From assembly GCF_000264995.1 (NCBI RefSeq), contig NW_006767437.1, positions 1,643,736 through 1,707,735 on the forward strand: a stretch of 64,000 nt of DNA, read 5' to 3'. The first letter of the stretch is position 1. Every line of letters begins with the position of its first letter. The notes under the pieces are model-generated. The model ran no database searches, was not told the DNA's origin, and was given only the letters and a program-made list of their open reading frames with translations. The position numbers and the translations under genes are program-made. Shown one piece after another: positions 7,856-55,587 of the stretch. This stretch comes from Punctularia strigosozonata HHB-11173 SS5 (taxonomy: Eukaryota > Basidiomycota > Agaricomycetes > Corticiales > Punctulariaceae).

Positions 7856-8956
7856 CTACGCCCGATGAGCCCGCAGAACTGAAGCAATAGTAGTGAGTAT
7901 GTGACCGACCCGAGCATCCAGACGACTAACGGTGCTGATTCAGTTCATCCTTCCTGGAGTATGTTTTATGGCATGTATCACATTCGAAGGGCCGGTCATC
8001 GGTGTGCTTTCCCTTGATGTGCCGCGTAAGGTCGTGTTTTCTGACGAAGGCCTTCCCGCAGAACTCGTAATGGCAAATGTGAGGTTTGTTGCCCTCGTGC
8101 GAATCGCGGTGACCTATGCAATGTATCGTCATGCTATTCAATCTCCATGGCGGATGCCTTACTTCTGAGATTCGCCTGAGTAGTGAAGGTGTTGTGACAC
8201 AGATCGCACTTATACGGTGCTTCGGAAGTGCGTCTGATAAGACTCGCGCGTTGTACTGCCGGGGTTGAGACTTCGAGTCTGAACGGCGTGGGTCGCTCAG
8301 GAGTATGTACCCTGTTCGCGGAATCATATGTGGACGTGTCTGTTTTATCGCAAGAGCCGGACGGAATCGTTAGTCCTCGCGCATATCGTTGGATTCGGGC
8401 ACTTACCTGTCCTATATTCAAGATTCATATTGTCACCGGCGGACCACGAACGATGGAATTCGTTCTGAGTAGCGTTCATGGCCATATATGATTGCGCAAA
8501 TTGCTGCTGTGATTGCATCTGATTCTGTGAAAGCGGAAGCGCCGGCATTCCCGTATAATGGCTTGTTCACCGAGCTATGAGTGATATAGGTGCTGTTTGA
8601 TTATGCGCCATACCTATGGTTAACCGTGGCCGACTGCTGACCATGGTTCCAGCCATGGGTAGAGAAGGTTGAATGCCCAGGAGCACCAAAAGGCGCGACC
8701 GAACCCACATCCGCCACGCTAAATTTGGGAGGTCAATAAATCCAAAGTGATGAGGCCGAAGATGAGACGCAGCCTACAACGTTGAAGTCGGTGTCGTCCA
8801 AGAAACCGCATTGTCACTCGATGTGTATCCGTGTGTATACGAGACATGCTGCTGCTGAAAATCGCCATTGTATGGGGTAGCATGGAACTCGTTGCCCTGC
8901 GAGGGGTGTGGAGCGCCGGGTTCGGTGGAGCCAGTCTGTCGCCACGAGGGTTGCAT
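7856..8956 (-). CDS. C2H2 zinc-finger protein, paralogue A (three fingers)
   Basis: Probable nuclear DNA-binding protein and the shortest paralogue, about 273 aa. Exons on the minus strand: 8778-8956, 8614-8718, 8407-8561, 8163-8339, 7931-8113, 7856-7878, all in phase. The N-terminus is Gln/His/Thr-rich (QMQSQQQ) and lacks the Ser/Arg patch of its relatives. Before finger 1 sits the family motif (VSTPAVQRASLIRR). Finger 1 is C191-C194-H207-H211. Finger 2 is C-X4-C (C219, C224, H237, H242) with contact residues R, D, R. Finger 3 (C250, C253, H266, H271) is completed only by splicing an intron that falls right after H266; without it the frame stops one residue later. The intron in finger 1 is 49 nt. 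The weakest junctions are the GTAGGC donor of exon 1 and the AAG acceptor of exon 3. Targets are unknown. It is transcribed divergently from gene B across a 2 kb gap. Confidence 0.75.
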
Positions 8957-10944
8957 GGTTGTGAAGTGCGTTCAAGTGCGTACTCGCAGGAAAGGGGAGC
9001 ACCGGCTTAAGTCGAGCTCAGGCATTAAGTAGTAGTTTACATACGGGAAGGGGGTAAAGAAGGAAAGCTTCGGATCTGCTGACTGGGCTTGAATGACGGC
9101 AGGTCCCGGACTGTTCATAAATGATATTTGCACCCGGAAAGGGTTGCGCGAGCTTTTTGGGATCCCCCAACAGCCGTTTCGGTGGCGGCTGTCAAAACAA
9201 AGACCGATGCTGCCTGCGGAAAGCGTTACTGTACAGCTATGATACGAGGACGGGAGATGGGATCGTGATCCGCGAGATGCTTCTGATCGTATTTTCCTGG
9301 GTGTGGAAAGGACAGAAAAGCACGTTTTAAGATGCAGACATAACGGTGCGAGGCTTGCAATCGGACTTTTCCCACCGGGTGCGCATAGCTTTAACACACA
9401 CCCGCAAATGGCAAGTCAGGGCCTCAGGTCCCATCGGCACTCTTGGAGAGATCGCGACAAGTGAATGCAATCCCAGTATATAAGACGAGAATGAGGCCAA
9501 GGTATGTGAGATGATCATGAAACACGTCATGCCATGAAGTTGATGGAGAAGTGAATGGCTCGGATGTGGAAGCTGCGCTCCCTAATCTGCATGCGAAGGA
9601 TGAGGAGTTGAGAGGCTTCACTAGCCAGCGTCAGTGTTGGCCGTCCGGAAATCGTCAAGGGGTTGTCGTTAAACAGCGAATAATCGACGTGTGAACCCGA
9701 GACATGTTGTGACATGTAATCTTGGCCGAGCTCGCTCGGGTCCTGACAAGCGTAAATAATAGCATGCACAGGTAAGCACAGATTAACGCAATTCAAGAAG
9801 TCTGACCATTATCAGCGGTCGGCATCATGAGTTGTTCCGTGGCACGTCTTCGGGGACAGGCTCGTCTCATATCTCAGGAGACGCAGCCGTACCGTTGCCA
9901 ATGGCGCCTTGGAATCAGAAGGGAGACTTTTTTCGAATCTGTCGCCCGCCGTTCCCGTTTTATCCGCCTGAGTAGCGATCCGCGCTTCAGGAAGCGGGCA
10001 CCCGAGATATTGGTATCTTCGCAATTGACGAAATGACATACCAGACTTTGGAACGGCCCCCGGAATTTCACACCAATACATGAATATTTCAAAGTGTGGA
10101 GCTAACAACAAATGGAGGGTGAGAGCCTTGTCCGCCTCGTCGTCGGTGTGAAGTGCGAAGCACGACGCGGAAGAACAAGGATTGCCATAAAAAGGCGCTC
10201 GCAGAGGCTCGAGGTCGGCAAGACGAACCGAGGAACAATGAGAGCTCAACCAGGATTTCCAGCTGTTTCGAGCCGGTACGCCTTGAGTTTGATCGTTACG
10301 AAGCTGCGACTCAGAAGCTGTTCGATATGAAACGCGGGCGTGGGGCCACGGGGCCAAATCGCAGCGCGGCGAGAGAGAACGGGGCATGCGACGAGAAACG
10401 AGGAGGTTCTTGAAGCCCCCGGCGACTATTGTTCTATCGGCTTTTTGAGACGAAGATCAGGGACCATCGGCAGTGACAAACTGTGAGAGGATGCGAGTCA
10501 GACTCAGAGGCAGCGAAAAGCGCCGAACTACATAGAGAGAGCCGGTGCTAAACAGCACGTGACATTTGTGTGGGAGGGAGGAGCGTCGCTCAACTTGCCC
10601 TACTAACTCGAATATGATCCAACAGCCAGCCCCTGGGCAGCGGGCATCCATTGCTCACACCACGACGCACACCCTCACAATGCACATGATGCTATACGGC
10701 ATTGTACACCGCATCGATGGCTGCACGTGTACAGCTATTTGGCGGCTGTCTGGATTTCCCTTATAAGCTCTGCATACAAGGCCCGCCCCGATCACCTTCG
10801 CCCCCCCACGGGGAGGGCTTTTGGCTGGCACTCTTACTATTCTCGTTTACGCTTTACCACGCATTTCTTTACCCGTTCCCATCATTTAAGCCATTGTTGT
10901 TCTCAAGCATAACTTCGCCTCTATCTTCTGTGCAGCCGCCCGCT
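8957..10944. other. Divergent intergenic region between zinc-finger genes A and B
   Basis: About 2 kb separating two divergently transcribed zinc-finger genes. No open frame here resembles a protein. A TATA-like element (CTTATAAG, 10761-10768) lies on the B side, 180 bases before the B start codon. The rest shows no clear elements by eye. Confidence 0.5.
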
Positions 10945-12529
10945 ATGAACAATCCATATTCCCAAGACGAGCATGATGACGGAGCGACGAGCTCGCTCGG
11001 GATCGATTTCTGCGATTTGGATATATTACAACAGTTCGTTTCCCTGGGTTTTTCCTCGGAGTCCGAGTCGGGGCATCACCTGCAGTGGTATGTACTCATT
11101 ATGGTGCTTAACCAATGGCTGACTGGTTCGTCGCAGCACGAATACAGATACACTGTACGGAACGATAGAAGACGGCAGTGCAACATCCTGCGAGCATCCA
11201 GCTGCCTTCGTACATCAGGCGGACCTCGCCTCGTACCAATCTTCAAGTGGGCTAGTGGACTCACAACCGCCTGCTGGATCGGACCTCTCTTCATGGTAAA
11301 TGTCGCGCCATTTGATTGCATGTAAACCATGTCTCAAAATGAGTGCCAGGGACACAGCATCTGCAGATCTACCACGTTTGGCATTGTCTCCGGCGTCTTG
11401 CACGAATACTTCTTACGAACATCAACCGTCCATGACACTGCAGATACGCGACGGCGTCGGACGACCCCTATTGACGCCCCTCGTTACATACGCACCCAAC
11501 GGCTCTTCTGGGCCCGTACATGGCGAAAGCGACCAGTCCGGCGGCTCTTCCCCGAACCTTCTTTCCTCATCCCTCGCGAGCAGCCCCACACTTGACCCTC
11601 TGAGCGCCCATATGCAGGCCATGTCTCCATATGGATGTGACGGAACACAAGCTTACTTTCACTACGCTCCTGTCCAGGGCGACCTCAGCCCCGGCATGCT
11701 CAGCCCTCACTCTGGGTTCCGTTCTCGCTCTGGTTCCTTCTCTTCCGTGTCCTCCGGTCGGGGTGCATCTCGCAGTCGCTCACCATCATCTCGTGCAAGT
11801 CCATACCCCGTCAGAACACCCAGTCCCAGCCCTTCGATGTCCTCGGTCTATGAGGATAACCAGTATAACTCCGTTGCCATCTCTGACACAGAAGACGGCG
11901 GACTTGAAGGCAGCTTACCTCCTAACGCGAGGCGGCATTCGCTGGGACAAATCACCAAGCCCGTCGTCACTACAGCGAAAGTAGCCGCCGCCGCTGCCGG
12001 GCGCAGAAAGTCAGACGCATCCTTCCAATGTCCCATTTGCGGAGCGAGGCTTACCTCAAAGAAGAACTATGAAGGTTCGCGGAGCTCGACAGAGCAACGT
12101 ATCACAGAAGTGCTGATGGTCTTCAACTTCAGGGCACGTCAACGCTCACCTGGGCGAAAAGCCTTACGTTTGCGGAGCCGAGGGGTGCAGCGAGACGTTT
12201 GCTCGGGAGTGGGACTGCAAGCGACACAAAAGGACGACCCACTGTGATGCACGGTTCGAATGCGTCAAGTGTCGGCGACTATTCAAGAGGAACGACAGCC
12301 GTATGAAGCATGGTAAGCATATCTTGCTCCTCGAAGTTGCCCCCTCGTTGAGCGAGTCTTCCCAGAGCGCAAATGCTCCGCGAACGACTTCGAACGCGGT
12401 CGCCCAGGTCGTCCTGACAGTCCAGCTGTACAACAAACCGTCGGCCTACCTGACGACACGTTTGGCTATGTAATTCGCTTTACAGAAAGTTCCGGTGGCA
12501 CGACAGGGGAGATGCCACGAACGGAATAG
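10945..12529 (+). CDS. C2H2 zinc-finger protein, paralogue B (three fingers, last one C2HC)
   Basis: Probable transcription factor, about 456 aa. Exons: 10945-11087, 11137-11295, 11350-12074, 12133-12312, 12366-12529. It begins MNNPYSQDEHDDG, a start resembling those of E, F and H. The body is Ser/Pro/Gly-rich with a strong SR patch (SRSRSPSSRASPYPVRTPS) near residues 245-265. The pre-finger motif (TKPVVTTAKVAAAAAGRRKS) leads into finger 1 (C328, C331, H344, H348), whose phase-1 intron falls before H344. Finger 2 is CGAEGC-X12-H-X4-H with contacts R, W, D, R. Finger 3 is C386-C389-H402 and then, across an intron with a GTAAGC donor, C406, so it is C2HC. Reading through that last intron also stays open (to 12473) but gives H-X2-H spacing, so the spliced form is preferred. 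The tail after the fingers is Pro/Gly/Thr-rich. Confidence 0.8.
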
Positions 12530-13382: not shown

Positions 13383-15063
13383 ATGGCGACCCATCCTGAC
13401 ACCTCATGCTACCTGTGGTCCCAGCCACGCGCCACCGAGCAGGAAGAGTTGTCGCCGGCGTATACTCCCGCCAGTCCCTACCCTCAGGACATGTACTTGA
13501 CGGGTCCCGAAGCCGTTTTCGACGTAGATGGCCCCTGGACCAGCCAGCCGTCTTCGTCGTTGAGCGTGCCTGATCTGGATGAGATATTCGCAGCTATCGT
13601 GAATATTCAGGCATCGCCCATACCCTCACCCGTGCCCTCTCCCGTCGAGTCCCCAGTCCATCTGTGAGTCATCTCTGAAAGACAGTTCCTGAGGGCTCGA
13701 CCAACACCTTACACTTGTAGGTCCATTGGTGCCCCATATAATGAGCCCGTCTCCGCTCCCATCCAGCCTATGTACGGAGGGTCCTCGTCACTTGCACAGT
13801 GCGCTCTATATTGTCTTCCTGTACATATCATCGCCTCAAGCTTGAACTTGTAGTGCCCTCGACCCACCTAATAGCATGCTCGATCCACCCAGGGGCCGAC
13901 CGTCCCTGAGCCGTCTGCAGATAAACAGCAGTCCTCGACCAGTCCCAGCTGCCACAGCCCCTTCCGCTCCCCCGAGCCTTCATATCCCAACGCCGGTGAT
14001 TGTGGCGCCTCACCCCCCCACACCTCCGCCGGTCGTACACCTGGCAGTTCCGGGACCTCCTCATCACCACGTCCGTCGTCGTTCCGAGAGTTCCCTGTTC
14101 CCTAAGCCGACTGTCGAGTACCAGCTCACCGCGGTCCAGAGCGCAAGCGCAACGCCAAGCCCGGGCCTCTTGTCTCCGCCGCCGCTTGGAATCCAGCGTG
14201 CTCGGTCGTTGAGCGATGGACGTCCCGCCGGCCAACACGGCCGTTCGAAGTCCGATACCACCGGACTTCTATCGCCCGGTTGGCAGCGTTCCAGTCGTGG
14301 ACCATCACGATCGCCGAGCACGAGCTCGTCGCGGCGGTCGTCGCCGTATCCCGGCAGCCGCTCGGTCAGCCCCTGCCTCAGTCGCGACGGCGTCACCGAC
14401 GTCGACGGCGACTCGCTCCCCACGACGCCCATCTCTGTTGAGGGCGTATATCAGGATCAAGCCGATACCATCGTGGGTTCGACTTCGCAAGAGGCGTCTC
14501 CGAGGCCTATTGTGAAGGCGATAGTCACGAGCGACAAGGTCGCGGAGGCCAGCATCCGCAGGCGCAGGAATACTACGGAAGATGCTCGCTTCAAGTGCGA
14601 GCATTGTGGCAGGTAAGTATCTCGCGAGTTCCGTTCGGACTGAAGATGGCTCAACTCTGGCCCTGTGCAGGTGTTTGACGTCGAAACATAACCTGGACGG
14701 TCAGTTGGCAATATGATCATTGCGTTTGTAGATGTTGTTGACACGTGTGTTCCAGGTCACATCCGATCTCATAACGACGAAAGGCCATTCCCCTGCGAAT
14801 ACCCGCCTTGCGACAAGAGCTTCAGTCGGAAATCCGACCGCAAGCGTCACCAGGAGACCGTGCACCAGTCGCTCCAACTCAAGTGCGAGAAATGCGATGG
14901 CGGCTTCTCTCGGAAAGACGCCTTGAGCAAACACGGTTCGTGCTGCAAACCCTTACTTTACGTAACCAAGCCGTTTACGCGTCTGCTGGCAGCCAAGACA
15001 TGCGGGCAGCACCTGACCGCTAACCTGCATGCAAACGCGTTCCAGCAAGGGCTTCGCCGCTAA
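13383..15063 (+). CDS. C2H2 zinc-finger protein, paralogue C (three fingers, last one C2HC)
   Basis: Probable transcription factor, about 465 aa. Exons: 13383-13663, 13721-13798, 13854-14612, 14671-14699, 14756-14935, 14993-15063. The body contains a Pro/Ser run (SPIPSPVPSPVESPV) and an SR/SPY patch (SRRSSPYPGSRSVSP). The pre-finger segment (VKAIVTSDKVAEASIRRRR) precedes finger 1 (C368, C371, H384, H388). Finger 1 is split twice: by an intron after CEHCGR and by the family phase-1 intron before H384, leaving a 29-nt exon between them. Finger 2 (CEYPPC, contacts R, S, D, R) and finger 3 (C-X2-C-X12-H442) follow. An intron with a GTTCGT donor after H442 gives HAKTC, a C2HC finger with C446; unspliced reading also stays open and would give HGSC. 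Same strand as B and D. Confidence 0.8.
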
Positions 15064-17862
15064 CCCCAAGCAGGCACGATCCCTCACATGCACACCTGCC
15101 CGCTCTCAATATGCCATCGTCGTTCTTGGTTATACAACGAATCTTTCCTCGGTTCCCCTACTCGGAAGTCATGCCTATACATTCTCTATTCCTGTTTCGG
15201 GCTCCTGCTTTACCCGCTAGAGGGTGATGCTCCTTTGATTAATGATGACCTAACTCGGATATCACTTGCTATCATTTTTGACTCCTAGTCGTTGCTTTGT
15301 GTGTACGTGCTTTCATTCTCGATTCGCGGTCAACGCCTTGTTCGAACTTGTGTTGTGACCAGTAAAGCCCAATGTAATATGTAGTTCAATAGAGTGCGCG
15401 ATGTCAATCCGCTATATTCATGGAGTTGCTTGATGTGACTGGCTCTAGTTCTGTTTCTCTGACTGATGGGTGGCACCCTAATGCGGGGTGTCCGAACAGC
15501 AATTGCTGTACCCCGCTACCAACGGCAATTGGTGTAACCTAGGTTCGACATCGCGGAAAAGTCGTAACTTGGGATGCACTAGGCATAGGGATGCTTCCAA
15601 GATGATAAGAGTATGATAACCTCAACCTCGTGTTTTGCATGACCGCGAGGAGGGCCGCTGAAGTTCCGGGGGGGGGGGCAGAGTCAGTCAGGACCGGTGC
15701 GAACCCCACCAGAGCTCCGATCCCTCAAAGAGGCGATTTCGGCCATTTTTTGGGTTCAGGTGAAGGTCTCAAGAGGGCGATTTTCGGGGATTTGACATCA
15801 GACATGTTCTTGATTAGCACGTCCTGGATGCAGCGGACAAGATCCTTGTACGCGCCAAGCACTTAAAGCCTGCCTGATTCTGCCTGTCGGTGGAGTGAAT
15901 GGTGGTGGAAGCAATTCGGGATACGGCGAGCTCGGAAAGTATAGTGGGTAGATGAGCGCAGTGGAGACTCGAATTTGCGCAGGTAGTGTGTAGACACATG
16001 CCAAACAGGATATGATTTTCTGGATGGATACGCAGCCAGTGTGTCCCACAGCTTACTGGTTGTCACGTCTGGGGTCCAATTTCAGGGATTTTGGATCGAA
16101 CCCCGCTCATATAACCGCCTCTTTTCGGAGCAGACCTGGATGTAACATTTTGCCCTCTACCCCGATGTTTTCGGGGTTTCGGTATCGGAGCTCGCGCCCA
16201 TAAACGGTGGCTGTGTGGATCGGAGCTCTGGCGGGACAATTCTTTACATAAGGGGCGAATGTTGGCGTTGGTGCTGTTCAACTTTCAAGAGAAGCCTACC
16301 GAGCGCTACGTCTCGAACGCAGACACGGCGGTTCAATCACCACCTGAGGTGGATGATGGGTCCGACACGTCGTCCTCGAATGGGGTCGACGACGACAAGA
16401 ACAAGGTAAGCATCATGATCCCGCCTATTCTAAACCGCAACTGAGGGATCATGACAAAAACATCTGGGAACAGCTACGCGTCTCGAGCCCTTCGAGCGTC
16501 GTAGAAATCGCATTAGTCAGTCCCGGTCAGCCCGGTGGTAGCTTGGTGCCATTTCGGTTCTTACGCCTATGCTGATGCGGTCAACAAAGTTTACCTTATC
16601 ATGCATCTTCCATCGACGCGTTGTCGACGCGACATATGCCTGTACAGGTCTTCTTTTGTTGATCCTGCAGACGAGCAGGGCAATCATACTCTGCGAATGA
16701 AGTCATGCGGTACAGCTTGGCGCGAGTTTGACTCATCCTGGAGCTGTGCACTTTTGCCAGAGCCTGTCTGCCGGATTCTCATGAGGATCTGCATCAATTT
16801 GCAACCCATTCGTCCCCGAGCAGCGTTTGCGTTCGTTTTCCGAACGGCTTGCAGAACATCCTTTCCGCTTGCGTTCCAAACAAGCACTAGTTCGCCTGTT
16901 CAACCTCGCTCGTGTCTGCTGCGACCCTCCCTTCCTCGTGTACAGTTCTTTTTCAGGTTGATCCGGCGGATTGATGTTGCAACTTGGCTTGGAGATGCTC
17001 CGGGTGGACACAATCTCGTTCGTCGTCCGAGGTGGCAAACGAACACGCACCCAAACAACATACCTACTTGGTACAAATATTGCTTGGTATGCTGACCACA
17101 TCGATCGATCTACCTTACTGTTTGTCGATCGTAGCGCGAGACACATTCGCCTGATACCCGCGTTCCAGTCCTCCGAGCTTTTCAATTGGTTTCCCTTAAT
17201 GGTCCTCCGAACCCGCCCCCGATGTGTCGTGAGTGGTCCTCGTGCTGGCATCGTCATCTCGTTGATCTCCCGTCGTTTCACCTCCCATGCCTTTATAGCC
17301 ACATGAACTAAGATCATCTCGAAGTCATATTACCCACGCCATGGTTCAAATGCTCCCGCACAGCGCCAGATCCGTTATTGCAGGAGCCAAGCTGGATATG
17401 ACGACCCTGAATGCATACATCCGGGGTGTTCCTAATGGTCCCAGCTCAACCGGGTGGTCGCGGGTCATCTTCTGCTATTGGTTGGTTCGCAAGTCCTCTC
17501 TTACCTCTACTATAACCTGCTAAGCTCACCTCTCTTACGTACAGTATCTCAACGGTCACTCCAGACTTTGAGTTTGTTCACTATGGCGTGTAACACCATA
17601 AATGGCCTTTGTGGACACCCATGAGTTCCAGCTGCGCGCGAACCGCTCCAAAACGCGTGATGTGCGAGGCAGGTAAGCGCTTGTTTGGAAGACCACAGGT
17701 CCACACATAAATTGCGCCACCCCTCGTTGTGACATTCTGAACCTACGGCTCAGAATGGCCTTTCCCCACCGAGTGCTCCTTCCGATTTATGAACGTCGTC
17801 GCACACGTCAGAGCTTCGCGCCTCAGACCTTGTCACCTCAGACCTTGTCACCTCCATCTGCT
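15064..17862. other. Intergenic, no supported gene
   Basis: About 2.8 kb. A 10-G run occurs near 15670. An open stretch at 16259-16408 ends at a good GTAAGC donor and encodes an acidic, Ser-rich peptide (VDDGSDTSSSNGVDDDK), but no convincing partner exon was found, so it may be a gene remnant. Just before gene D the 15-mer CTCAGACCTTGTCAC is repeated in tandem (17822-17851). Confidence 0.45.
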
Positions 17863-19240
17863 ATGCGCATCGCCAGCGGGTCCAGCACGTACGTTGCACA
17901 GGGGGACTTTGCGTACCCAGAGTAGTGAGATAGTTTTCTTTTCTGAGGTCGAGGCGTGGCTGACCTGCTGCTGGACCAGTTGTCAGACGACGATCAATGC
18001 CGACTCCCAGGTCTATGCCGCAGTCAATGCACCGCATGCCTCCTCCTCCAGCAACATGATAGAGAGTGATTACCCACCATCGGGCCATTACCTTGCCGGG
18101 ACCTACGCGAACATGGTCGATCCTGGCTCGCTGCACTCTCCTTGTAAGTGCTCACAATTCTTCGCATCCGGAAAGTAGGAAGTATCAGTGTCGTTTAAAA
18201 CCCCCATAGACACCATCAACCCACTCTTAGGGACGTCCAATCCGTCGGAACGGGTGCCCGAGACGTTTACGGGACCCTCCGTCTCGGATGATGCACAGGG
18301 ACACTCACCTGCGGAATGGCACGGTACAACTTATCAAGGACTCACCCAGTCGCCGCCGACATGGTATGACTATCCGGGCCCTTCTCTTGCTATTGGAGAA
18401 GATGTATCGTCAATACAAACTCCAGAGATGCCGCCGTTTCCCGACGCATCGTTCACTCACCGAATGGGCCATGACTGCGGTCAGATGGCTGTCGCTCCTC
18501 CGGCGATGCAGTGGTCTCGTAGCTTCCCGAGCGATGGACACTACCGGGTACAGGCTTCCATCCCGAGTTCTTCTCTTCTTCACCAATCATCGGGGCGTCC
18601 CGGCCAACGATCGCAGGGGCCAGATTTCGAGAGCGCACCGGAACCCTCCGAGGCGGGCGCTCGCTCACAGTCCGCTGGGGGCATTATATCCCGGTCATTC
18701 TCATTGAATGGTCTTCCTCCATGTGATGGAGACCAGGAGCGCGAAGGTATGGCGTGAGATCCACCGCACCATTGTACTAGAGGAGCGTCTCACCCGTTCA
18801 TTTCGCAAAGGTGCGGCAGGCCCCTCGAGAAGCCGACGGTTCTCATGCCCGGAGCCTGGATGCCTATTGAGCTATACGACGAAGCGGAACCTCGAAGGTA
18901 GCTGGTTGACATAGCCAACCCGGTGGAACGAGTGACGAAACGGATCTTTCCAGGTCATATCGACTCTATCCATAGGCACGCCATAAAGTTTGTGTGCTCG
19001 GAGTGTAACAAGGGTTTCGCACGACCGTCCGACGGGCGAAGACATCAAACTACTCACGACAAAGCCAAACGCCCGAAATGTCATAACTGCGGCAAGCCCT
19101 ACAGTCGGCGTGATGTACTGAAGAATCACTTGATGAGATGTACTGAAGAATCACTCCAGAAGGAGCACCACGGTCGGTGTTTCCGGCGGGTTGCTCGGAT
19201 ACTTCTAACTGCCCGAATTTAACCAGGCCACCAGGCGTGA
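17863..19240 (+). CDS. C2H2 zinc-finger protein, paralogue D (three fingers, last one C2HC)
   Basis: Probable transcription factor, about 370 aa. Exons: 17863-17924, 17980-18143, 18210-18746, 18781-18897, 18954-19172, 19227-19240. The last exon is uncertain: unspliced reading ends at 19222 with a different tail. The body is Ser/Pro/Gly/Asp-rich and lacks the SPY patch. The region before finger 1 is basic but the VA-x-AS motif is degenerate (GAAGPSRSRRFSC). Finger 1 is C277-C282-H295-H300, with the family intron before H295. Finger 2 is CSEC with contacts R, S, D, R. Finger 3 is CHNC-X12-H-LMR-C, read without the intron found here in A, B, C and G. A 19-bp duplication, offset 25 bp, sits exactly at this point (19112-19155). 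The intron before finger 1 is only 34 nt, which is short for this window. Confidence 0.75.
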
Positions 19241-19980: not shown

Positions 19981-21866
19981 CTATCGCTCATCCTTGGTCG
20001 CCGGTTGGCTGGTACCGGACTTCGCGGGCTCGCCGAGCTCCACCTTGGTGCTCGTGGCTGCAGGCCTGATATGCATCTTCTGGACGTGTCGGTCTCGATC
20101 CGCCTTGCGTGTGAACTCGTCGCCGCAATGAGTACATTTATGTTCCTTGATGCCTTGGTGCGCCTTCTCGTGGTCTACGTTTCGCACCCCCTTCCATCAG
20201 TTTCAACAGCCTGAATCACGAAGACGAGCATCACTCACTGTCGCGGTTGATGCGCGTCGTAAGGCCGGCTTGACAGAATCTGCAGATGAACTTGGCTTCT
20301 TTCTTGCGCGCCTTGCGCGCGGCCTCCGCGATGCCCTCGGTCATGACCACCGGCTTGACGAGGTCCGGGGGAAGGAGCCCGATCGACGCGGGAGCGACCC
20401 CGCCGCCACCACCCATGCCTCGATACATATCAGGCGCCGGGACGCCCCACTCGCCGTGCATGCGCACCGGGCCCGGGTTCGAGAGCCCCCGCGGACGCAT
20501 GCCAGGGTGGACGTGCGCGCTCATGGGCAGGCCCGCGTGCATCGTGCCGTTGCTGAGGCCTGGGATCTCCGCGGAGCTCCAGTACCCGCTGGCGGGCGGC
20601 TGGGCAGGCAGCACGTGCTGATACGGCCCGTCGGGCGGGAGGCTGCTGTCGCTGCTCGGGCTGTGGCCCCGGCTCGTGGGTCGGCTGTTGTAGGGGCTCG
20701 TGCGGTGGGAGGAGCGCGAGCCGCTCGAGGCGCCACGTCCGCGTCCGGCGGGATCGCGCAGCGACTGCGATCGGCCGCGCAGGCTCTGCCCGCTGGGGGT
20801 GAGGTAGGTGTTGGGATCCATGGGGACACCGAAGGCGTCGAGAGGGTACATGACGTCCGTCTTGATACGACCGAGGTTGTCGGTGAGAGACCGACTTCGG
20901 CGGACGTTCGCTCCCCCGAAGTCGTCAGGGAGCGAGATGGGCTGGTCGAGTAGGTACGATTGCTCGGGAGGAGTGAGCGGAGAGTGGTGAGTCGGGGTGC
21001 CTGCTTGGTGAGTCGGTGTGCCTACTTGATGTGTCGGGGTGCCTACTTGATGTGTCGGGGTTCCCGCGGATGCCGGGGTCTCCTGCTGATGGTTCAGCAC
21101 GGTCCTTTCGAAGCTGGTGTCCAGAGAGAGGTCGATGGGTTCCAGGTCGGAATATATGGAATGGGGACTGCCGTGCGGATCCGAATAGACCGACTGTGAC
21201 GGCTCGGTTTCGTACGTGTAGGATTGCTGATGCGAGCCTTGCATCCATCTCATGCCTTCGCCGTACGAGTTGGCGTACTCGGCGTCGGGCGGAGTCAGCA
21301 TCGTCGTTGCCCGAGACGGCGGCTGTATCATGATCGTCGGCGAGTCTTCCGACTGATGACGTCCATGGCCGGGACGAGATGATCTGCGTTCGTGTCCGTC
21401 GTAAGTGGACGGCAGCGAAGTCCGGTTATAGAAAGAGACCTACCCCACATACCCGCCGCCCGCCGTGCTTCCCAGCGCGTTCGCCAGTTCGCTCGTTATC
21501 GCACTTTATGGGCGCAACAGGCCTCAGCTCGACGACGCTAGCGTTCACTGAGGGTACCTACGCGTCGCTCGGCATCCAGGTCGCGTCGGGCCCAAAGTCG
21601 AGGGTGGGCCCCGCGCCGGCATCGGCTCGTTGAAAGGCGGGCATACTGTAGTCTAGCAGCTCCGCGAGGAGAAATGAGGTCTGCGGGCTCGCTGGTCTGC
21701 TACCCTCCGGCGTGTGGTGGGATGATCCCGCGGGTGATCCTGGGGCAGACGAGGTGCCAGTCAAGTACTCAAAGGATGCGTTGGGCGAGTCGGGCGAAAG
21801 CCAGCTGCTGGGCTCGCGCCAGAGGTCGTTGGTGGTGTCGTGGTGGGGTGAGCCGGATGGATTCAT
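19981..21866 (-). CDS. C2H2 zinc-finger protein, paralogue E (two fingers)
   Basis: Probable transcription factor, about 547 aa, the longest paralogue. Exons on the minus strand: 21562-21866, 20239-21383, 19981-20174. The first intron is unusually long (178 nt) and may hide a small exon. It starts MNPSGSPHHDTTND. The body is Pro/Ser/Thr-rich, carries a tandem repeat of the heptad GTPTHQV, an SR/SPY patch (SRSSHRTSPYNSRPTSRG) and a Gly-rich stretch (RGMGGGGGVAP). The pre-finger motif is VKPVVMTEGIAEAARKARKK. Finger 1 is C469-C472-H485-H489; its helix reads TTRINRDN and the family phase-1 intron falls before H485. Finger 2 is CTHC with contacts R, A, D, R. There is no third finger: about 29 mostly polar residues follow and the protein ends. 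It is convergent with D. Confidence 0.8.
20985..21068 (-). repeat. 21-bp coding minisatellite in zinc-finger gene E
   Basis: About four copies of a 21-bp unit encoding GTPTHQ plus one variable residue (V, V, A, then H). The two central copies are nearly identical at the base level. It lies in the disordered body, so copy-number change in steps of seven residues would be tolerated. Confidence 0.85.
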
Positions 21867-23933
21867 GGCTTTCCGCGTTTATGAGAGCCGGAACGCGCAG
21901 CTGTGGTAGCGTCTTAAGGTGCGCCAAATAGCCATCGCCCATATCGACGCCGCGGACGGCGCATCAATAGCTTGAATAGCATGACACCTGTGCGATGCCG
22001 TTTGGCGCCCAGGGGCGGTGTCAAGGCGCGTGCTTTGAGCCCGGAACGGTAATCGCGTGCGACGCCAGGCGATGAAAGGCACACGTCGCACGGGGCGGTA
22101 CTTTATCTGGGGTTATATTGCAGACGGCATACGTAGGCAGGCAATGAGCGAGTCGCGCTAACAACGGGTAGACGCCATTACAGGTCGCCAGCACCCGCCC
22201 TCTCCGCACTGCGTCTACGGACCGTCGTCGTCCCGCCCAGTGGTTAGTGCATTCCCCTTCATGGCGTTCCGCGTTGATCCCGCGTTGCCGTTCCGAAGAC
22301 AGGGTTGCCGTGAACGCGTTGTATGCTGTCCGTGCTCGCTCGGCATTCCAATCGGCGAGTAAGGTTCCTCCCATCATGCATCAAACAGGGCGTTGGGTGA
22401 TTGGTCAATCTACTCCCACTCGTACGAACATCATGTGTAAATGTTCTCTCGGACATATTTCGCTCTCGCAGTTCGTGACACGAGTTTGGATTACTGGGGC
22501 GAGACGGTGCAGCTTCGATAATCGCGATGAATGGAAGTGTCGACGCTGTCTCCCAACGGCCTTCGAAAACATTTGCCATTTGTGCCATCGCAATGCCGGT
22601 TATCTACTACTCACAGGGGTCTGGATCGAGAACACGCTCCAAATAGCCGGCAAGATGCAGCTTTTGCAGCGGGTGCAGCAACACACCACCGCGGAGGTCG
22701 AAGTTGGATTGGGCCACGACGATGCTGGGGATAAGACGATCTGTCCGACACGCCTGTCATAGCTTCATCATCGGGAACGCTGCAGACTCCGGTAAGGATA
22801 TGCCTTGAAGCGTCCACGGACCACCAGTATCTTCCAGAACAAACGTCGCCACAATCCGTGTGGGAGTTTCGGAGGCCCCTACACCGCCCGAACGAGAACC
22901 GCCTCAACAAGATGTCCCTCTTGAGCGTGGACGCTGGAAGGCCGTGAAAGCTGGTCGGCTTCTTAACAATATTGAGATCGCACCATCCTATGCGATGCAC
23001 TCAGGGTAGGACGGGACGTACCCAGACGGATGTGCTCTGCGCGGGGATCCGTTGGTAAGACAGGCGCCCGTGGCTCCGGCGCAGATCGAACATACGATAG
23101 GGGCATGCTGGCTGGATGCGGCAGTAGGGAGGATCCACAGGTTGCTTCCGCCGTCTGCAGTGGGTCAGACCATTTCCGCCGTCTCCTATGTTTCAGTTGC
23201 TCCCGAAGATGCTTCCGCCGACAGCTCATCGAGATTTGACACCGAAGCTGGCAATATGTACTGAGGCCTCAGGGGCAAAAAAGCGCGTCAGGAACAACGC
23301 CACGGCGTTAGGACCTCGTGTCGGTATCGCGAGCATTTCGATAGCATTGGAGCTTCTATAGAAACCTATATATTCGCACCTGATACGTCAGGAAGGCTAT
23401 AGAGGTTCCGTATAGGGGGCGGTGTTGCGTCGTCGGCGGTGGTAGTTCGTTGATAGTGAGATGTTCAGCCTTCCATCGATTCATCCCGGGTCGGGCCCGG
23501 ACCTACTGCCCGTGGGCCGTATATGAATGAACCAGTGCACCCCCGAGGGTTCTGTTGGACTGTCCGATAGCTTGTTGCACGCCAACAACGTGTTCGTAAG
23601 TAAAATTTATCAGGAATAGTCTTGATCAATCTCTGCCCTCGCGGAGGCGTGAGCGTGAGGACCCGCCTTGAACGAGCATGGATGGCGGTGCCGGAAAAGG
23701 CTGCGACTCGGGCAGCCGCCTAATGTGCACGTGCCGTTTCAGCAAGGGCGCGAGCTCCTCCTTCCTTTCTAGGAAGGCGCTCCATAACTCCATCAGGTTG
23801 CTAACATAGACACGGCGCCGCCGAATTTTGAGCCGCAGTCCTCTTGTTCCCGGTCTCATCCACGCCGCACGCCGTGCACGACAGGCAATCCCTCTTTCCT
23901 TTGCCCCACGTTCGTTTTCTTGTGCTCGTCAGA
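21867..23933. other. Intergenic between E and the TOS1-like gene, with a coding-like tract
   Basis: About 2.1 kb with no recognised gene. On the plus strand, 22655-23261 contains several stretches with protein-like composition (for example PSAVGQTISAVSYVSVAPED ending at a stop near 23261) and a GTAAGG donor near 22792. I could not join them into a phase-consistent gene with a clear start. A small unrecognised gene or a remnant is possible. Confidence 0.4.
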
Positions 23934-25372
23934 ATGCTCGCGACGAACCTATCCATCTCCGCCGCGACGGCGCTCGGCCTGATCAGCGCCACCAAGGCGA
24001 CGCTCACGCCCAACAACCTTCTGGCGGCGTCGACGAGCGGGTCGCTCACTGCCGTTCGGTACACCCATGTCGGTGGCGACGGCTCGTACCAGCAGGTCAC
24101 CGACCTCGTTCCCGGTACCTTCCCAACCTGCAGCGCCAACCCGGTAAGCCTGCACGAACTCATCAGATCGGCCGAACATTTCTGACGCGTTTTTCTCTTA
24201 TTGACCATAGTCGTGCGTGAAGACGACGAAGACCGTCAGCGGTAACCTCGCGCCGTTCGACGAGGACCTCACCGTGGTCATGCGCGGGCCTATGAACGTG
24301 TACAACATCGCGGTCTACCAGCCGGACAACACGACTTCAGCCACATGGAAACGGACCAGCTCCTGGGCCTCTGGCAACGCGGCCCATAACCTGGTCTTTA
24401 TGAACAACAACGGAGGAGGCGCGAGCGGCGAGTGGTCAAGTCAGTTGCTCACACCGTCGTCCCTGGCTCGCGTGCGATAGGCATTGACCATCGTATTATT
24501 ACTAGTCTGTGGTGGTGCCAGCCAATCATACGCCTCCAGCGACTTCTCAAGCGCAGCCGCGTCCCCGAAACAGACGTACGGCAGCTACATTTCCGCGTCG
24601 GACGAAGTCGTGAGTGTCCCGACCCGCTATATGTTGTCACGTCGCTCACGGGATTCATAGAACATCATGACCGCCACGGAATGCAACGGCTCCAACTGCG
24701 AGGGCTTCTACCGCGGCACCTCCAACCTCGGCTGGGCCGGCTCCAAGATGTTCGTCTTCGAGTTCGACATGCCCAGCGACAGCGACTCGGTCACTCCAGC
24801 CATCTGGGCCTTAAATGGCCAGGTCGTCCGCAGCGCCCAATACGGCTGCAATTGCCGCGGCGAGGGTGGCGAAGGCGGCTGCGGCGAGATTGACCTGGTC
24901 GAGAACCTGGTCGATGCCGATCACAATCAGGGTATATCCGAGATCTACGTGAGTGCGATTCTCACTCCGATGTACCTGGGCGCGTTGTTTTCGGTGATGG
25001 ATATCTGACACGAGCGCTCGGGAATCATAGTCCTTCAAGGGTGCCACGGGCACAGGTACAGGCAACTACTTCGCCCGTCCGACGACTGAGAAGGCGGTCT
25101 TCGGCGTCATCTTCGATGTCAAGACTGATCAGATCACAATTCAGAAGGTGAGTCGTTATGTTTTCTCCCGGGATTTTCATGCCGTATTCTGACAATGGCA
25201 CCGGTCCTATATGCAGTGGTCATCGTGGGACTTTACCCAGAAAGCCGTCACCCGGAGCATCATCGACGGCTACCTCTCCACTACCGCCAAGGTCATCTCG
25301 TTCAGCACCAACGCTCGCAAGCGCCGTGAGCATCGCGTCCCCACCTTCCTCGCTGGACGCCGCCGGCACTGA
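23934..25372 (+). CDS. TOS1: TOS1-like secreted cell-wall protein, putative glycosyl hydrolase
   Basis: Secreted wall protein of the TOS1/YJL171C family (DUF2403 then DUF2401), for which a beta-glucan-acting hydrolase role has been proposed. Exons: 23934-24143, 24211-24439, 24506-24609, 24661-24948, 25031-25147, 25217-25372, giving 367 aa. Residues 1-22 form a signal peptide (MLATNLSISAATALGLISAT). The N-terminal half has the Gly/Asn-rich features of the family (FMNNNGGGASGEWS). The C-terminal domain has the Cys-rich GCNCRGEGGEGGCGEIDLVE; its E-I-D-L-V-E matches the ExDxxE pattern of GH16-type catalytic sites, giving two candidate catalytic glutamates. No membrane anchor is seen; the protein ends in a basic tail. 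Neighbours are zinc-finger genes E and F and there is no sign of co-regulation. Every junction is canonical and phase-consistent. Confidence 0.9.
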
Positions 25373-36759: not shown

Positions 36760-38134
36760 ATGTTGTTAGTATACGCAGAGGATCAACTTGCATTACCATG
36801 GACTGACTTGATCAGCAGGACCTCATTTCGTACCGACGCTGCATCCACATACGTCGGTATAGACGACTCTGACCTGTATACGCACCGTTCTGGTCAGTCG
36901 ACTACCCCTAGTTGACATGTTTTCTGATTATTGATGCTCTCTTCAGCGACATGGCCTTTGCGTCGAGCTTTGCCCCAACCACTTCCATGTCTACATCCTC
37001 ACGTATCTTACCAGTATGAACCCGCCACGACTGGGCTAGCGACGTACGACAGTCCTGCTAAGGGGGTCATGGTCTCGGTCTTTCCCCCGCAGACAGATCA
37101 CGGACGTGTATCCTCGCTGCCACCGATGTCGGCGGAGGCCTGCAGGTTGGCGGCGAGGATTCCTTCCGCGAGCGCTCCCGCGGCGCTCTGGACAGGTGCG
37201 TCGGCATAATCTTTCCGCCGTCTTTTCCCTAAATCCAACGTGTAGATCCGGGCATTGGGTTGACGCATGCATACGTAGAGCATCCAAGAAACAGTGCTTC
37301 TGGCGGGCCCGAGCATCCACCTCATGAATATCTCCCGAGAACGTTTGGGGTACGTGATTATCGTGGACCTCCGGTCATTTATTAGAGATGCAACCGCGCT
37401 TGACCATATTTAGACGCAGAGTAACACGGCGTCACTTACGCCGACGCAAGCTGAGACCTCTAGCTTAAACTCGTGCGCCGCCGCTTCTACGGACTCCGCG
37501 CAGGCTTATTCTGGGACCCTCGAAACAAGAGTCGGTGCTGCGCCATGCTCGTCTACGGACACCGAGCGACGTTGGAAGCATGTGCAGCCTGGGTTCTCCA
37601 GCAGTGCTGCATCATATCAAAATTCCGCCGAATATAAACCTGTCACTGCGCAGGTAGCTGAGTTCTCTGCCAGACCTGCACCGCGGGAGAAGAGGAGCAA
37701 GGGAAGATCTGCCCGACATTGTTGCCCCGTGAAAGATTGCGAAAAGTCCTTTACGACTAGAGTTAACCTAGAAGGTGAGTATTGCATGACAGAACTATCA
37801 TGCGTCACTTCTGCTTCTTAATCTCATGTCCCCCGCCGCAGGTCATCTGCGCTCGCACACTGGGGAAAAGCCTTTCACCTGCGCTAAAGGATGCGGCCGG
37901 CGCTTCGCACGGCGCTCAGACTGCGTTCGCCATCTAGCTACACACGGTCTCGGGCACGCGCATGTCTGCCCCGTCTGCAACAGACACTACACCAGACGCG
38001 ACGCGGCCCTTAAGCATCTTGCAGGTCGGTAGCTGCCGTGCTAAGACGTATAATTCCTTTATTGACGCCGCTCGGACTGATGCTTCTCGACGTATACAGG
38101 CACTATTTGCGGAACGTTAACAAACGACCTTTGA
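36760..38134 (+). CDS. C2H2 zinc-finger protein, paralogue G (three fingers, last one H-X5-C)
   Basis: Probable transcription factor, about 339 aa. Exons: 36760-36892, 36947-37199, 37289-37349, 37420-37774, 37842-38024, 38100-38134. The junction after exon 2 is the least certain: a GTCGGC donor at 37200 keeps the frame of the next exon ([20 protein letters not shown]), whereas the nearby GTGCGT would not. The body is Thr/Ser/Ala/Pro-rich. The pre-finger motif is weak ([17 protein letters not shown]). Finger 1 is CPVKDC with helix TTRVNLEG; the family intron falls before H269. Finger 2 is CAKGC (C-X3-C) with contacts R, S, D, R. Finger 3 is CPVC-X12-H326, then an intron, then C332. The protein ends ten residues later. 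It lies 4 kb upstream of the ATM1 gene's start and is convergent with TMA46. Confidence 0.75.
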
Positions 38135-47333: not shown

Positions 47334-47353
47334 GGTAGGTAGGTAGGTAGGTA
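47334..47353. repeat. (GGTA)n microsatellite
   Basis: Five near-perfect copies of the tetranucleotide AGGT, upstream of the LRRC40-like gene. Confidence 0.85.
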
Positions 47354-48514: not shown

Positions 48515-48772
48515 CGAAACACACATCCGTCACATAGGTGTCAAAAACACCGCGGAGTAGCACAATCGTCGCCCAGTCATCGCCCAATCGTCGCCAAAAT
48601 CGTCGCCAAATCGTCACCCAATCGTCACCCAAAACGTCGCCAGCGAAACACACATCCGTCACATAGGTGTCAAAAACACCGCGGAGTAGCACAATCGTCG
48701 CCCAGTCGTCGCCCAATCGTCGCCAAAATCGTCGCCAAATCGTCACCCAATCGTCACCCAAAACGTCGCCAG
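48515..48772. repeat. 129-bp direct tandem duplication built on ATCGTCGCC-like subunits
   Basis: Two adjacent copies of 129 bp (starts 48515 and 48644), almost identical. Each holds a unique part (ACACATCCGTCACATAGGTG onward) and a minisatellite of GTCGCCAAATC/GTCACCCAATC units. The array of subunits continues to about 48850. 129 is a multiple of three and both strands are open across it, so the minus strand shows a 43-residue protein-level repeat (GDVLGDDWVTIWRRFWRRLG). No start, splice or domain evidence makes that a gene. Confidence 0.85.
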
Positions 48773-48915
48773 TCGTCGCCAGGATCGTCATCCAGACCGA
48801 CTTCGATGCATCCATCCGAATCGTCACCCAATCGTCGCCAATCGTCACCATTTACCTTTTCGTGATGTCGAGCGTAGGAGGATGAGTGAGGGAGCACAGG
48901 CGGATGAACACACTG

Positions 48916-49070
48916 AGATAGCAACACCGAAGGAGCGTCATCCGGACCGAGTCCGAGGCATCCATCCGCAGAACAGGTGTCAGAACATCACAAACGTATC
49001 ATAACGTCGCCCAACGGTCTCGTTAGGAACCTTGTTGTCGGTGAGATCTGCCATGACGCTCTCGTCAGGC
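48916..49070. repeat. Dispersed repeat, copy 2
   Basis: Same orientation as the copy at 47803-47959. Shared landmarks include GAGCGTCATCCGGACCGAGT, GGCATCCATCC, TTAGGAAC and GTTGTCGGTGAGATC. Differences are scattered substitutions and short indels, indicating an old duplication rather than a recent one. Confidence 0.8.
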
Positions 49071-49103
49071 GGGAAAGGGTCGGATAAGAGAGGGTCGCCG
49101 AAT

Positions 49104-49153
49104 GAGCAACACCGAAGGAGTGTCATCCGGACCGAGTCTGAGGCATCCATCCA
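49104..49153. repeat. Dispersed repeat, truncated copy 3
   Basis: Only the first 50 or so bases of the dispersed repeat are present (GAGCAACACCGAAGGAGTGT to GGCATCCATCC), in the same orientation, 35 bases after copy 2. Confidence 0.75.
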
Positions 49154-52100: not shown

Positions 52101-53807
52101 TGCGGACCTGCCCTTTATATACCTGTGGGTACTTCGGGAGCTTCGGCTGGGCTTCGCAGCGTGCTACCATCTCCTATTTCCCTCGTTCGGCGCCTGATGG
52201 GTGAGATATATGATTCATATGAAGATAGTCGGTCAGCTCATTGCCTCCATCCGGCCGGACGAGAGAATGTGCCACGAGTCGGAATTTGTGCCCCCGCAGC
52301 ACGTACCAGTGCTTAAACACCATCTCCGTTAACATCACGGTAACGGCGTGTTTCGAGGGGGCCAAGTTCTCGTCATGTCGCAAAACCGAAAGCGAGATCG
52401 ATTGGCAGCATCATGGGTCTTTTGTTGATGGAATCGATTGTGTGTTCGCCATCGCGACATGAATCCTAGGTCACTCCTGACCGGAGGTCGGCTACACTCT
52501 CCCGTTTGGGTCGGAAGAAGTGGTCGCGGTGTTGGCTAGCGTATGTCAAAGATTGTAGGCTCAGGATGGGACGCGTTACGTCGAAAGGACGTACACGAGA
52601 TTACGGTCCGGATATTTCAGGAACAAGAGAATGTCCGTGGCGACCGGCCGAGAAGTTCATGAGGCTGCGCATAGGACGCCACGACGGTATCGCGGGGACG
52701 CGAATCGTGCGTTCGCTCATTCCGGATGCGAGTGGTAGTTCGAGATGTGGTCGCTTGAGGTAATCTCACGTACTGTAGCGGAGGCGAGGAGATTGCTGCC
52801 GTTTCCAGTCGATACAGCCTCCGTAGTCCGTACTATTGTGGCTGGTATAGGATTGCGTCATGTAATCAACGGGCTGACGTCGCTTGTGATGGGGAATCAC
52901 AATCGCCTTCGTGACATATGTGCATGGTATACGTACCTAGGCGCACGATGGGCCATCCAGCCAGAAGCAAGCGCCTACAGGTTAAGTATTGCTGCTCGCC
53001 GTTCGACGGCATTGCACGGGAAGTCGATCGACCGGTTAGCCTTGCTAACAGGTACTTGGATTGACTTTGATTCCTGGGTGCAAGACAAAGCTCGCTGTAT
53101 AGGCAGTTTCTCATGGTCAGCGGGCGTTTCTTCGGCGAGGCGGTGAGGGGGCGACACCAAGTCCTCAACAGATTCCAGAAGATGGCGAAAATGGCGAAAA
53201 TGGAATTACGAGCGGCGTCCATTCCGCACCCGAGGGTCACGTGCAACATTGCCTTTTCGCGCAGCCTCAGCTTCCTGTGCTGCCAGAAGACACATCTCTC
53301 ACCTTCGTCCAGTGCCCATTCTGAGCTTCATGGGGATGCCCAGACTGATAAGGCCACTAAATCCACCCGGGCCAGGCATGAACTCTCCCGGCGATCAAGG
53401 ATAGATCGGAATCCGATAACTCCTGCCGGAAGCCGTGGTTTGCACTTGAGTGTCCGCTGAAAGAATACACTGGTCCGCCACACGCTGCGAGAGCTCTCAG
53501 AACATCCTCTTGGTCCTCGTACTGTATCTCCGTCGCGAGCTCAGGTCGGTTGTGGCGCGTGCCTTCTGAAGAATAAAGCGCCCCAGAAATGGGCAAGTGG
53601 CGTCCGGACCGTCCCCAGCGGCTGATCTGTCGTCAAAGCGGCAAGGCGTTTGGACCCACAACGGACCCACAACTTTTCGTTTGCGAGCCGATGCTTTCGC
53701 TCGCGTTGCCTCGAGGCCTCCCCGATGGGAACCCACCCCCCCTGACCTCTTGTACTCACAAAAGCGACCACCTCCAGCCACCCGGAACCGTAGCCATTGT
53801 TGGGAGC

Positions 53808-53813
53808 TATATA
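53808..53813 (+). promoter_or_regulatory. TATA-like element upstream of zinc-finger gene H
   Basis: TATATA in the context GAGCTATATACCG. It lies 122 bases before the in-frame ATG at 53930 and about 300 bases before the preferred ATG at 54107, so it slightly favours the longer start. Confidence 0.35.
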
Positions 53814-54106
53814 CCGACCCTTCGAAAGCGCATGTCCGAAAGTGCGCCTACACTCCCCAACCTCCATTGCCTTGACGGACCGCGAACCGCGTACTCGCCA
53901 CACTCCCTACATAGCGCCTTTCGCCTCTGATGTTGGCAGACCTCCGCCCTTCTTTGTGCCCTCCCCGCCGACCCAGTTCTTGCACCATCTCGGTGAACAC
54001 GGATCCCCATCAGCGCCGTGGTTCTAGCAGTCGTTCACTATCAGCACCGCCGGTATCCTTGCCTGCTTACGGGTTCCTCGTCACAAGCTTCCCCCCGGAT
54101 CCAAGA

Positions 54107-55587
54107 ATGAACTCGCCCACCTCCCTGTTTGTCGCAGAGGGCGCTTCTCGCACCCAATCACCCGATTCTCCCACCTTGCCCTGCAATCCGCCCTTCCTGC
54201 CCGAAAACACCTTGCCAGAATCTCTGCCTTCCGATCTCCAAACCACGGACCACAGCTCCTTCGACTCGAACCCATGGAATGAATTCTCAATGTCGGTATA
54301 TTTATAACAAGCGCGCCGTCAATTGTTTGACCGTCCCTTCAGAGATACCCCTCTCGAGCCCGTCCTGCCGTCTTCGGCCCGCGCCACACAGGAATTCTTC
54401 AAGGATATGTCACTCTCCCCCATACCGCAATTGTATAACACCCCGGGAGGCCCTCCTTCTGTCTGCTCAAGAATGTCCCCGGGACACAGCGACCCTCCGA
54501 CTCCGTTCTTCGACTTCACTCCACCGTTGCCTAACATAGGGCCCCTCGACGACGGGCATCTGTTGTTGTCACTATCACCCCCCAAACCATCTGCCATTGA
54601 CTTCGACGTCAACGCGTTCATTCTCGAAGACATAGACATGTGGTCATGCAGCCAGAGTGAATTCATCGTTTGCACATCGATATCTTAGCATCATACTAAC
54701 GTGCGTCACGTCCAGACTCTTCCTCGCACGACCCTTCCATGTACGCGTACAACTCCCTCGGGCTCCAGTCACAGACTGGCTCACCCGAATCAACAACATC
54801 CACGGGGACGTCGACCGTCGGGCTCTCTCCGTTCGCGCACAAACCGTCCTTGATGGAACCGCAGCCTATGAGGCCGTACCTGGCTGAGAATAGTAGCAAC
54901 TCGGCACCTCACCACCAACAAGTTTCATCACGTCCAGCCTCCACACGGCCCTTCGACGGGATCTCGGCCAGCTTCGCCTTCTCCAGCGTGCGATCCACTG
55001 CGACGACGCCACAGGGCGGGAGCTACTATCTCGACGTGCCAGGATCATCGATGGCGCTGCCGCCACACCGGCGAGGTGTCTCCCTTGACGGCGTTGGCCC
55101 TGGCGGGCGCGTCCCAGCGGTCGCCGAGTCGCGATCGGCTTCCGCTGCCAGCCGACGAACCCCGCCGTACATATCCCGTCAACGGGCACCGTCCCAGGTC
55201 ATGCCCCGCATCTCGAAGGCCCACCGTGACGTCCCCCATCATCGGGAAGTCGTGGCCACCCCCGCTGTCGCGCTCGCCAGCCAATCGCGACGGAAGCGGC
55301 AAGCGATTTTCAAGTGCAGCATCTGTCCCTCGGAATTCACGAAGAAGATCAACCTCGAAGGTATGTCGCTTGCGGGTGTTCAGTTCTCCCCGCTGTGACA
55401 TGACATCTAATCCCCGTCTTCCTCTTCGTTCATAGGTCATGAGAGGTCGCACCGTGGTGACAAGCCATTCAAATGTGTCTATCATCCATGTGAGAAGGGC
55501 TTCGCTCGCGAATCAGACCTCAAGCGCCACATGAAGATACACGAAAGGAACGCCGCAGAAGCCGGGGGCCTGACATACGTGGCATGA
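54107..55587 (+). CDS. C2H2 zinc-finger protein, paralogue H (two fingers)
   Basis: Probable transcription factor, about 431 aa. Exons: 54107-54291, 54343-54656, 54716-55360, 55436-55587. The start MNSPTSLF matches the MN/MD-x-S/P starts of B, E and F; an in-frame ATG at 53930 would give 490 aa. The donor of exon 1 (GTCGGT) is inferred from phase. The body is Pro/Ser/Thr-rich, with acidic-hydrophobic segments (IDFDVNAFILEDIDMW) that could be activation motifs, and an SR/SPY-like patch (SRSASAASRRTPPYISR). The pre-finger motif is VVATPAVALASQSRRKR. Finger 1 is CSIC with helix TKKINLEG and the family intron before H383. Finger 2 is CVYHPC with contacts R, S, D, R. It ends 15 residues after the last finger. 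It lies apart from the other paralogues, beyond the housekeeping block. Confidence 0.83.

What the first reader, a model, noticed from the sequence alone, without database searches (positions are those of the whole stretch)
7856..55587. Eight paralogous C2H2 zinc-finger genes in 48 kb
Genes A-H share a C-terminal finger block, a disordered Ser/Pro-rich body and common splice positions, yet their bodies barely align. Seven lie between 7.9 and 38.1 kb in mixed orientation with TOS1 and ATM1 interspersed, and one lies beyond the housekeeping block. Such a dense local family of C2H2 factors is unusual for a fungus and points to a lineage-specific birth-and-death array, comparable in logic to clustered zinc-finger families in animals. 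Mixed orientations suggest repeated small duplications and inversions rather than one tandem event.
Basis: partly seen in the sequence, partly recalled or inferred. Interest (0 to 1): 0.85.

Follow-up and report, generated by a model that had tools for sequence, protein, structure and literature searches.

The report
Old cluster of eight zinc-finger genes
Eight related DNA-binding regulator genes sit close together in a fungal chromosome, and they differ almost everywhere except in the few amino acids predicted to touch DNA, which suggests a family that kept its DNA target while its regulatory parts drifted apart.

Summary
The eight C2H2 genes are real. All eight carry the same phase-1 intron, which splits finger 1 just before its first zinc-binding His. 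Their Ser/Pro-rich bodies do not align (best BLASTP E 0.059). The density is beyond chance: none of 20,000 random placements of 73 C2H2-like loci put more than 5 in 47.7 kb, against 8 observed.

The 'birth-and-death, as in animals' reading is only partly supported. No two genes share blastn-detectable DNA, so the duplications look old. Six or seven further loci with the same intron lie outside the window. The trees are star-like and do not unite the window genes (AU p 0.145 and 0.037). A slow-evolving relative lies about 34 kb left of the window.

Unlike the diversifying fingers of KRAB arrays (recalled), the DNA contacts are frozen: finger 2 has Arg(-1), Asp(3), Arg(6) in 8 of 8, while the other columns, zinc ligands and core Phe apart, are at most 36% identical pairwise. 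I read this as an old array of CRZ1-like regulators with a shared predicted GTGGCG-type core and divergent bodies. No related fungal genome was available, so species limitation is untested.

The parts
7856..8548 (-). Gene A: three fingers; finger-1 intron 8114-8162; small last exon 7856-7878 completes finger 3 (proposed). 5' exon uncertain.
10945..12473 (+). Gene B: exons 10945-11087, 11137-11295, 11350-12074, 12133-12473; three fingers
13383..15063 (+). Gene C: exons 13383-13663, 13721-13798, 13893-14612, 14671-14699, 14756-15063; three fingers; an extra intron inside finger 1
17755..19222 (+). Gene D: last exons 18820-18897 and 18954-19222; three fingers (third is C2HC); 5' exons uncertain
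19981..21866 (-). Gene E: exons 21562-21866, 21453-21503, 20239-21383, 19981-20174; two fingers, no third found
   Evidence: below PF00096 cut-off
26946..28414 (+). Gene F: exons 26946-27046, 27103-27257, 27329-28237, 28290-28414; two fingers
36951..38032 (+). Gene G: finger exons 37414-37774 and 37842-38032; third finger may need a further exon; 5' exons uncertain
53589..55587 (+). Gene H: last exons 54716-55360 and 55436-55587; two fingers; first exons uncertain
23832..24984 (+). TOS1-like cell-wall gene between E and F (matched stretches only; ends not modelled)
   Evidence: PF10287 E 9.3e-24; PF10290 below cut-off
29502..32080 (-).
   Evidence: PF00005 E 2.8e-34; frames

Best explanation
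An old local array of paralogous C2H2 transcription factors, part of a genome-wide family of about 14-15 genes whose slow-evolving members are at C5:1,609,710 (about 34 kb left of the window) and C3:2,197,305. Each gene encodes a Ser/Pro-rich body, taken to be disordered, then a basic stretch (not in D) and two or three C-terminal fingers. The contact residues of finger 2 (R-D-R) and, where present, of finger 3 (R-D) are held fixed, so members are predicted to read the same short core (by the standard C2H2 code, recalled: finger 2 GCG, finger 3 of the slow members G-N-G, together GTGGCG-like, the motif published for PuCRZ1). The bodies have diverged freely, so the likely consequence is several regulators with different inputs that share or compete for the same sites; two-finger members (E, F, H) would bind only part of the site. 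Shown: genes, intron, contacts, density, divergence. Inferred: DNA site, competition, origin by old duplication with dispersal.
For: Same phase-1 intron in 8 of 8 window genes and 7 further loci among 43 places examined (two of the seven are probably one gene). Contacts: finger 2 -1/3/6 = R/D/R in 8 of 8; finger 1 position 3 = N in 8 of 8; finger 3 -1/2 = R/D in 5 of 5 that have it. Other finger-2 columns, zinc ligands and core Phe apart, 0-36% identical pairwise. Exon-1 queries, which leave out fingers 2 and 3: (slow member) gives 6 rows, itself twice, C3:2197026 (E 3.2e-12), F (6.8e-8), B (0.046), H (0.13); (F) gives 8 rows, itself, the slow member twice, C3:2197017, B (0.002), C7:687495 (0.0145), G (0.023), H (0.18). 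Density. Published motif GTGGCG for PuCRZ1 (PMC10115967).
Against: The window genes do not group in the trees. The window plus its neighbouring slow member, the simplest local-burst picture, is rejected as one clade (AU p 0.006; with C3:2197305 too, 0.001). D pairs with a C7 gene (82/93, unstarred). In one search a C7 locus outranks G and H, and A, C, D and E are not reached by either exon-1 query. GTGGCG is not clearly enriched in the window (56 against 47.1 +- 6.8; 10 of 100 shuffles as high). PxIxIT docking motifs are at chance (3 against 2.6; 491 of 1000 shuffles as high). PuCRZ1 end-primer peptides have no exact match in this genome. R-x-x-D-x-x-R-H also occurs in other C2H2 loci fetched, so it is not private to the family. 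No expression data.
Confidence: 0.55

Rival explanations
1. A recent, species-limited birth-and-death array, as in KRAB zinc-finger clusters: repeated local duplication followed by rapid change of DNA specificity.
For: Dense cluster, mixed orientation, unequal finger number; exon-1 matches mostly on contig C5.
Against: No blastn similarity between the genes; the highest finger-block identity within the window is 57%; contacts frozen; no single clade.
Confidence: 0.12
2. Incidental clustering: each gene is an old, separate basidiomycete lineage and their proximity has no common cause.
For: Star-like trees; nearest relatives often elsewhere; AU p 0.037 against one window clade.
Against: Chance placement does not give 8 in 47.7 kb (0 of 20,000); shared intron, and exon-1 matches centred on contig C5.
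Confidence: 0.18
3. A partly decayed array: some members, A and G above all, are failing genes or relics.
For: Codon signal near zero for the models of A, B, D and G with an independent table; E below PF00096 cut-off; E, F, H without a recognisable finger 3.
Against: All eight finger 1-2 blocks are open, with splice signals, zinc ligands and contacts intact; the model frame outscores both other frames in 8 of 8.
Confidence: 0.15

Closest known systems
Basidiomycete CRZ1 (PuCRZ1 of Polyporus umbellatus, PMC10115967)
   Same: C2H2 factor of a basidiomycete; its published core GTGGCG fits the contacts seen here by the recalled code
   Different: Its sequence was not at hand; its end-primer peptides have no exact match in this genome; PxIxIT docking motifs are at chance
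Tandem and proximal C2H2 duplicates of Agaricomycotina (PMC12295980)
   Same: Local duplicates of C2H2 genes reported in several species (e.g. Ganoderma sinense, 8 proximal; Schizophyllum commune, 10 tandem)
   Different: The passages read give counts, with dispersed duplicates predominating, and describe no array with frozen contacts and unalignable bodies
KRAB zinc-finger clusters of mammals (recalled; also in the search listing)
   Same: Dense clusters of C2H2 regulators
   Different: Here 2-3 fingers, contacts kept rather than diversified, no KRAB match in the stretches scanned, no recent copies

Membership tests
C2H2 zinc-finger transcription factors | Fingers scored by Pfam | tested here: met
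   7 of 8 blocks over PF00096 cut-off; E only near, and under, the zf-C2H2_4 cut-off
One gene family (the array) | Same intron position and phase inside finger 1 | tested here: met
   8 of 8 window genes; 15 of the 43 places examined
One local clade | Window genes monophyletic within the genome | tested here: inconclusive
   Not one clade; AU p 0.145 and 0.037; no starred branch
CRZ1 | Three fingers with the contact residues of CRZ1 (recalled) | tested here: inconclusive
   Finger 2 and 3 contacts compatible, finger 3 absent in E, F, H; no CRZ1 sequence at hand to compare
CRZ1 | Calcineurin docking motif PxIxIT | tested here: not met
   3 matches in 8 bodies, 491 of 1000 shuffles as high
CRZ1 | Calcineurin docking motif LxVP | tested here: inconclusive
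   Matches in C (2), F and H, without a shuffle control
CRZ1 | Calcineurin-dependent nuclear entry | not testable with these tools
   Needs an experiment
KRAB-type birth-and-death array | Diversifying DNA-contact residues (recalled) | tested here: not met
   Finger 2 -1/3/6 identical in 8 of 8
KRAB-type birth-and-death array | Recent paralogues with detectable DNA similarity | tested here: not met
   None by blastn at E 1e-3
KRAB-type birth-and-death array | Species-limited clades | not testable with these tools

The most novel reading that the evidence does not exclude
A fungal transcription-factor array that keeps the fingers and changes the body: selection holds one DNA target while clustered copies diversify their regulatory parts, building many inputs onto one set of sites. 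The second C2H2 group on contig C21 may be a parallel case.
Probability: 0.2. Interest if true: 0.65.

Novelty: new variant of a known kind. Interest (0 to 1): 0.42.

Why it matters
If true, it would be the reverse of the best-known zinc-finger clusters: clustering used to diversify the regulation of one target set rather than to generate new targets. With conserved contacts and a defined predicted core, it can be tested directly by binding assays on eight small finger blocks.

Tried and rejected
GTGGCG enrichment in the window: not clear. PxIxIT motifs: at chance. Finding the PuCRZ1 orthologue from its published primer ends: no exact match; these patterns would miss a changed residue or an intron. 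Relatives of the C5:1609710 finger block in prokaryote genomes and viral contigs: none confirmed by tblastn. PDB search with the same block, not with a window gene: 137 sequences, led by ZNF568, the designed protein Aart and WT1, so only generic fingers. dN/dS was not attempted. C5:1573387, C5:1532629, C6:819473 and C16:208136 were set aside as another family: the last two have a phase-2 split, the first two resemble them by reading. C5:1610906 is counted with C5:1609710, because the two share a 100% identical repeat of period 1196 bp and each fetched locus holds 301 N; the N may be a gap or a withheld stretch, so 'assembly artefact' is my guess. C4:2148729 was left out of the trees, because its finger 1 could not be resolved. 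Places found only were not examined for the intron, apart from the two stretches. The 73 loci were typed, which used window genes among the queries and E up to 1, so that list leans towards this family, may hold weak matches, and still counts C5:1610906 as a locus of its own.

Papers. PMC12295980: passages only. PMC10115967: passages and section 3.1. All other papers: search listing and abstract starts only. None of the titles or abstract starts listed there described a clustered CRZ1-like array in a fungus; that is a statement about these six capped lists only.
Full report
What was checked. The window is C5:1,643,736-1,707,735 of a 33.57 Mb genome in 32 contigs. The DNA around them shows the same intron in every gene: the exon ends inside finger 1 at or near N-L-x-G, phase 1, and the next exon begins with the first zinc-binding His. 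A script confirmed this junction for seven of the eight; C is interrupted by an extra intron and was read by eye. Of 43 places examined (the distinct places), 15 carry it: the eight window genes, C2:2525802, C5:1609710, C5:1610906, C3:1328152, C3:2197305, C6:1278669 (weak donor) and C7:293756.

Gene models. A simple codon-and-splice model with the finger intron fixed gives proteins of 168-564 residues: E, F and H score 85.7, 63.4 and 64.0, B, C and D 26.1, 33.9 and 17.7, A and G 1.1 and 3.3. That codon table was trained partly on B, E, F and H. Rescored with a table from three non-finger stretches, E, H, F and C keep sums of 82.6, 52.6, 42.1 and 23.7, while B, G, A and D fall to 3.4, -1.1, -2.0 and -5.4; the model frame is above both other frames in all eight. 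So the finger exons are secure, and the 5' exons of A, B, D and G are not. Bodies are 19-32% Ser+Pro, do not align with each other (best E 0.059) and hold no Pfam domain in the ten pieces scanned. By eye, seven of eight have a basic stretch before finger 1 and five have an S/A/P-P-Y-P/N/I motif; the body at C5:1609710 has both. A, B, C, D and G have a third finger; none was recognised in E, F and H.

Is the density more than chance? Merging the hits gives 73 C2H2-like loci. In 20,000 random placements the fullest 47.7 kb held at most 5 (8 times); the window holds 8. The list leans towards this family, because window genes were among the queries, so the test says that these genes cluster, not how many C2H2 genes the genome has. 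To the left lie C5:1609710 and its identical neighbour 1610906 (period 1196 bp, 100% identity; 301 N in each fetched locus), probably one gene. Contig C21 holds another C2H2 group, 5 loci in 20 kb.

How old is it? blastn of the window against itself finds no similarity between any two of the eight genes at E 1e-3. Finger blocks are on average 41.1% identical within the window (max 57.1) and 40.3% to members elsewhere (max 53.4). The two slow members are 74% identical to each other and have the shortest branches. Trees on 83 and 105 columns have no starred branch, and the window needs four label changes in both. Holding the window together is not rejected with the finger block alone (p 0.145) and weakly rejected with the pre-finger stretch added (p 0.037). 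Holding together the window plus C5:1609710, or that plus C3:2197305, is rejected more clearly (p 0.006 and 0.001), which speaks against the simplest picture of one local burst from the neighbouring gene. These tests rest on few columns and long branches. Exon-1 queries point partly the other way: the slow member's exon 1 matches only itself, its repeat, C3:2197026 and, on the array, F strongly (6.8e-8) and B and H weakly (0.046, 0.13); F's exon 1 matches the slow members, then B (0.002), a C7 locus (0.0145), G (0.023) and H (0.18). A, C, D and E are not reached. I conclude: one family, old, concentrated here, with members also dispersed; a single local origin is undecided and somewhat disfavoured.

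What is conserved. In finger 2 of the eight genes, positions -1, 3 and 6 are Arg, Asp, Arg without exception; apart from the zinc ligands and the core Phe, every other column is at most 36% identical pairwise. Over 15 loci, counting C3:267590 (taken as outgroup, CRZ1-like by recall), -1 is R in 15 of 15, position 3 is D in 14 of 15, position 6 is R in 14 of 14 readable; finger 3 has R-D at -1/2 in 12 of 12 that have it; finger 1 has N at position 3 in 13 of 15. The pattern also occurs in other C2H2 loci fetched, so it marks a wider class. By the usual recognition code (recalled), finger 2 reads GCG and finger 3 of the slow members G-N-G, giving GTGGCG-like sites; the published motif of PuCRZ1 is GTGGCG (PMC10115967, passages and section 3.1). 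This is concordance, not proof: the PuCRZ1 sequence was not at hand, its primer-end peptides have no exact match here, PxIxIT motifs are at chance, and GTGGCG is not clearly enriched in the window.

Reading. The best-supported picture is an old array of CRZ1-like factors that kept a DNA target while the bodies diverged. The link to CRZ1 is a working likeness, not membership. The comparison with animal finger clusters holds for density only. Passages of a 2025 survey report tandem and proximal C2H2 duplicates in Agaricomycotina, with dispersed ones predominating (PMC12295980), so local C2H2 duplication in this group is known; an array with frozen contacts and unalignable bodies was not seen in the listings of six paper searches.

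Noticed in passing
window 57491-62150 (-): Tandem duplicate gene pair, 67-77% identical at DNA level in the matched pieces, with weak serine carboxypeptidase S10 matches below the Pfam cut-off.
   Followed up: partly
window 48515-48772: Two 99% identical copies of a 129-bp unit built of short CAATCGTCGCC-like repeats.
   Followed up: no
window 2032-3885 (+): Strongly coding 618-aa open stretch without a Pfam match at E 0.01.
   Followed up: no
G000 C21:51568-71141: Another group of five C2H2-like loci in 20 kb; the three whose sequence was read show two-finger blocks of a different make-up.
   Followed up: no
G000 C5:1609710 and C5:1610906 (L012, L013): A repeat of period 1196 bp, 100% identical, holding the slow-evolving family member twice, with 301 N in each fetched locus; perhaps an assembly artefact.
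   Followed up: partly
G000 C5:1532629, C5:1573387, C6:819473, C16:208136: A separate C2H2 family with another split of finger 1 (phase 2 in the two examined by script); two of its four members are also on C5, about 70 and 111 kb left of the window.
   Followed up: partly
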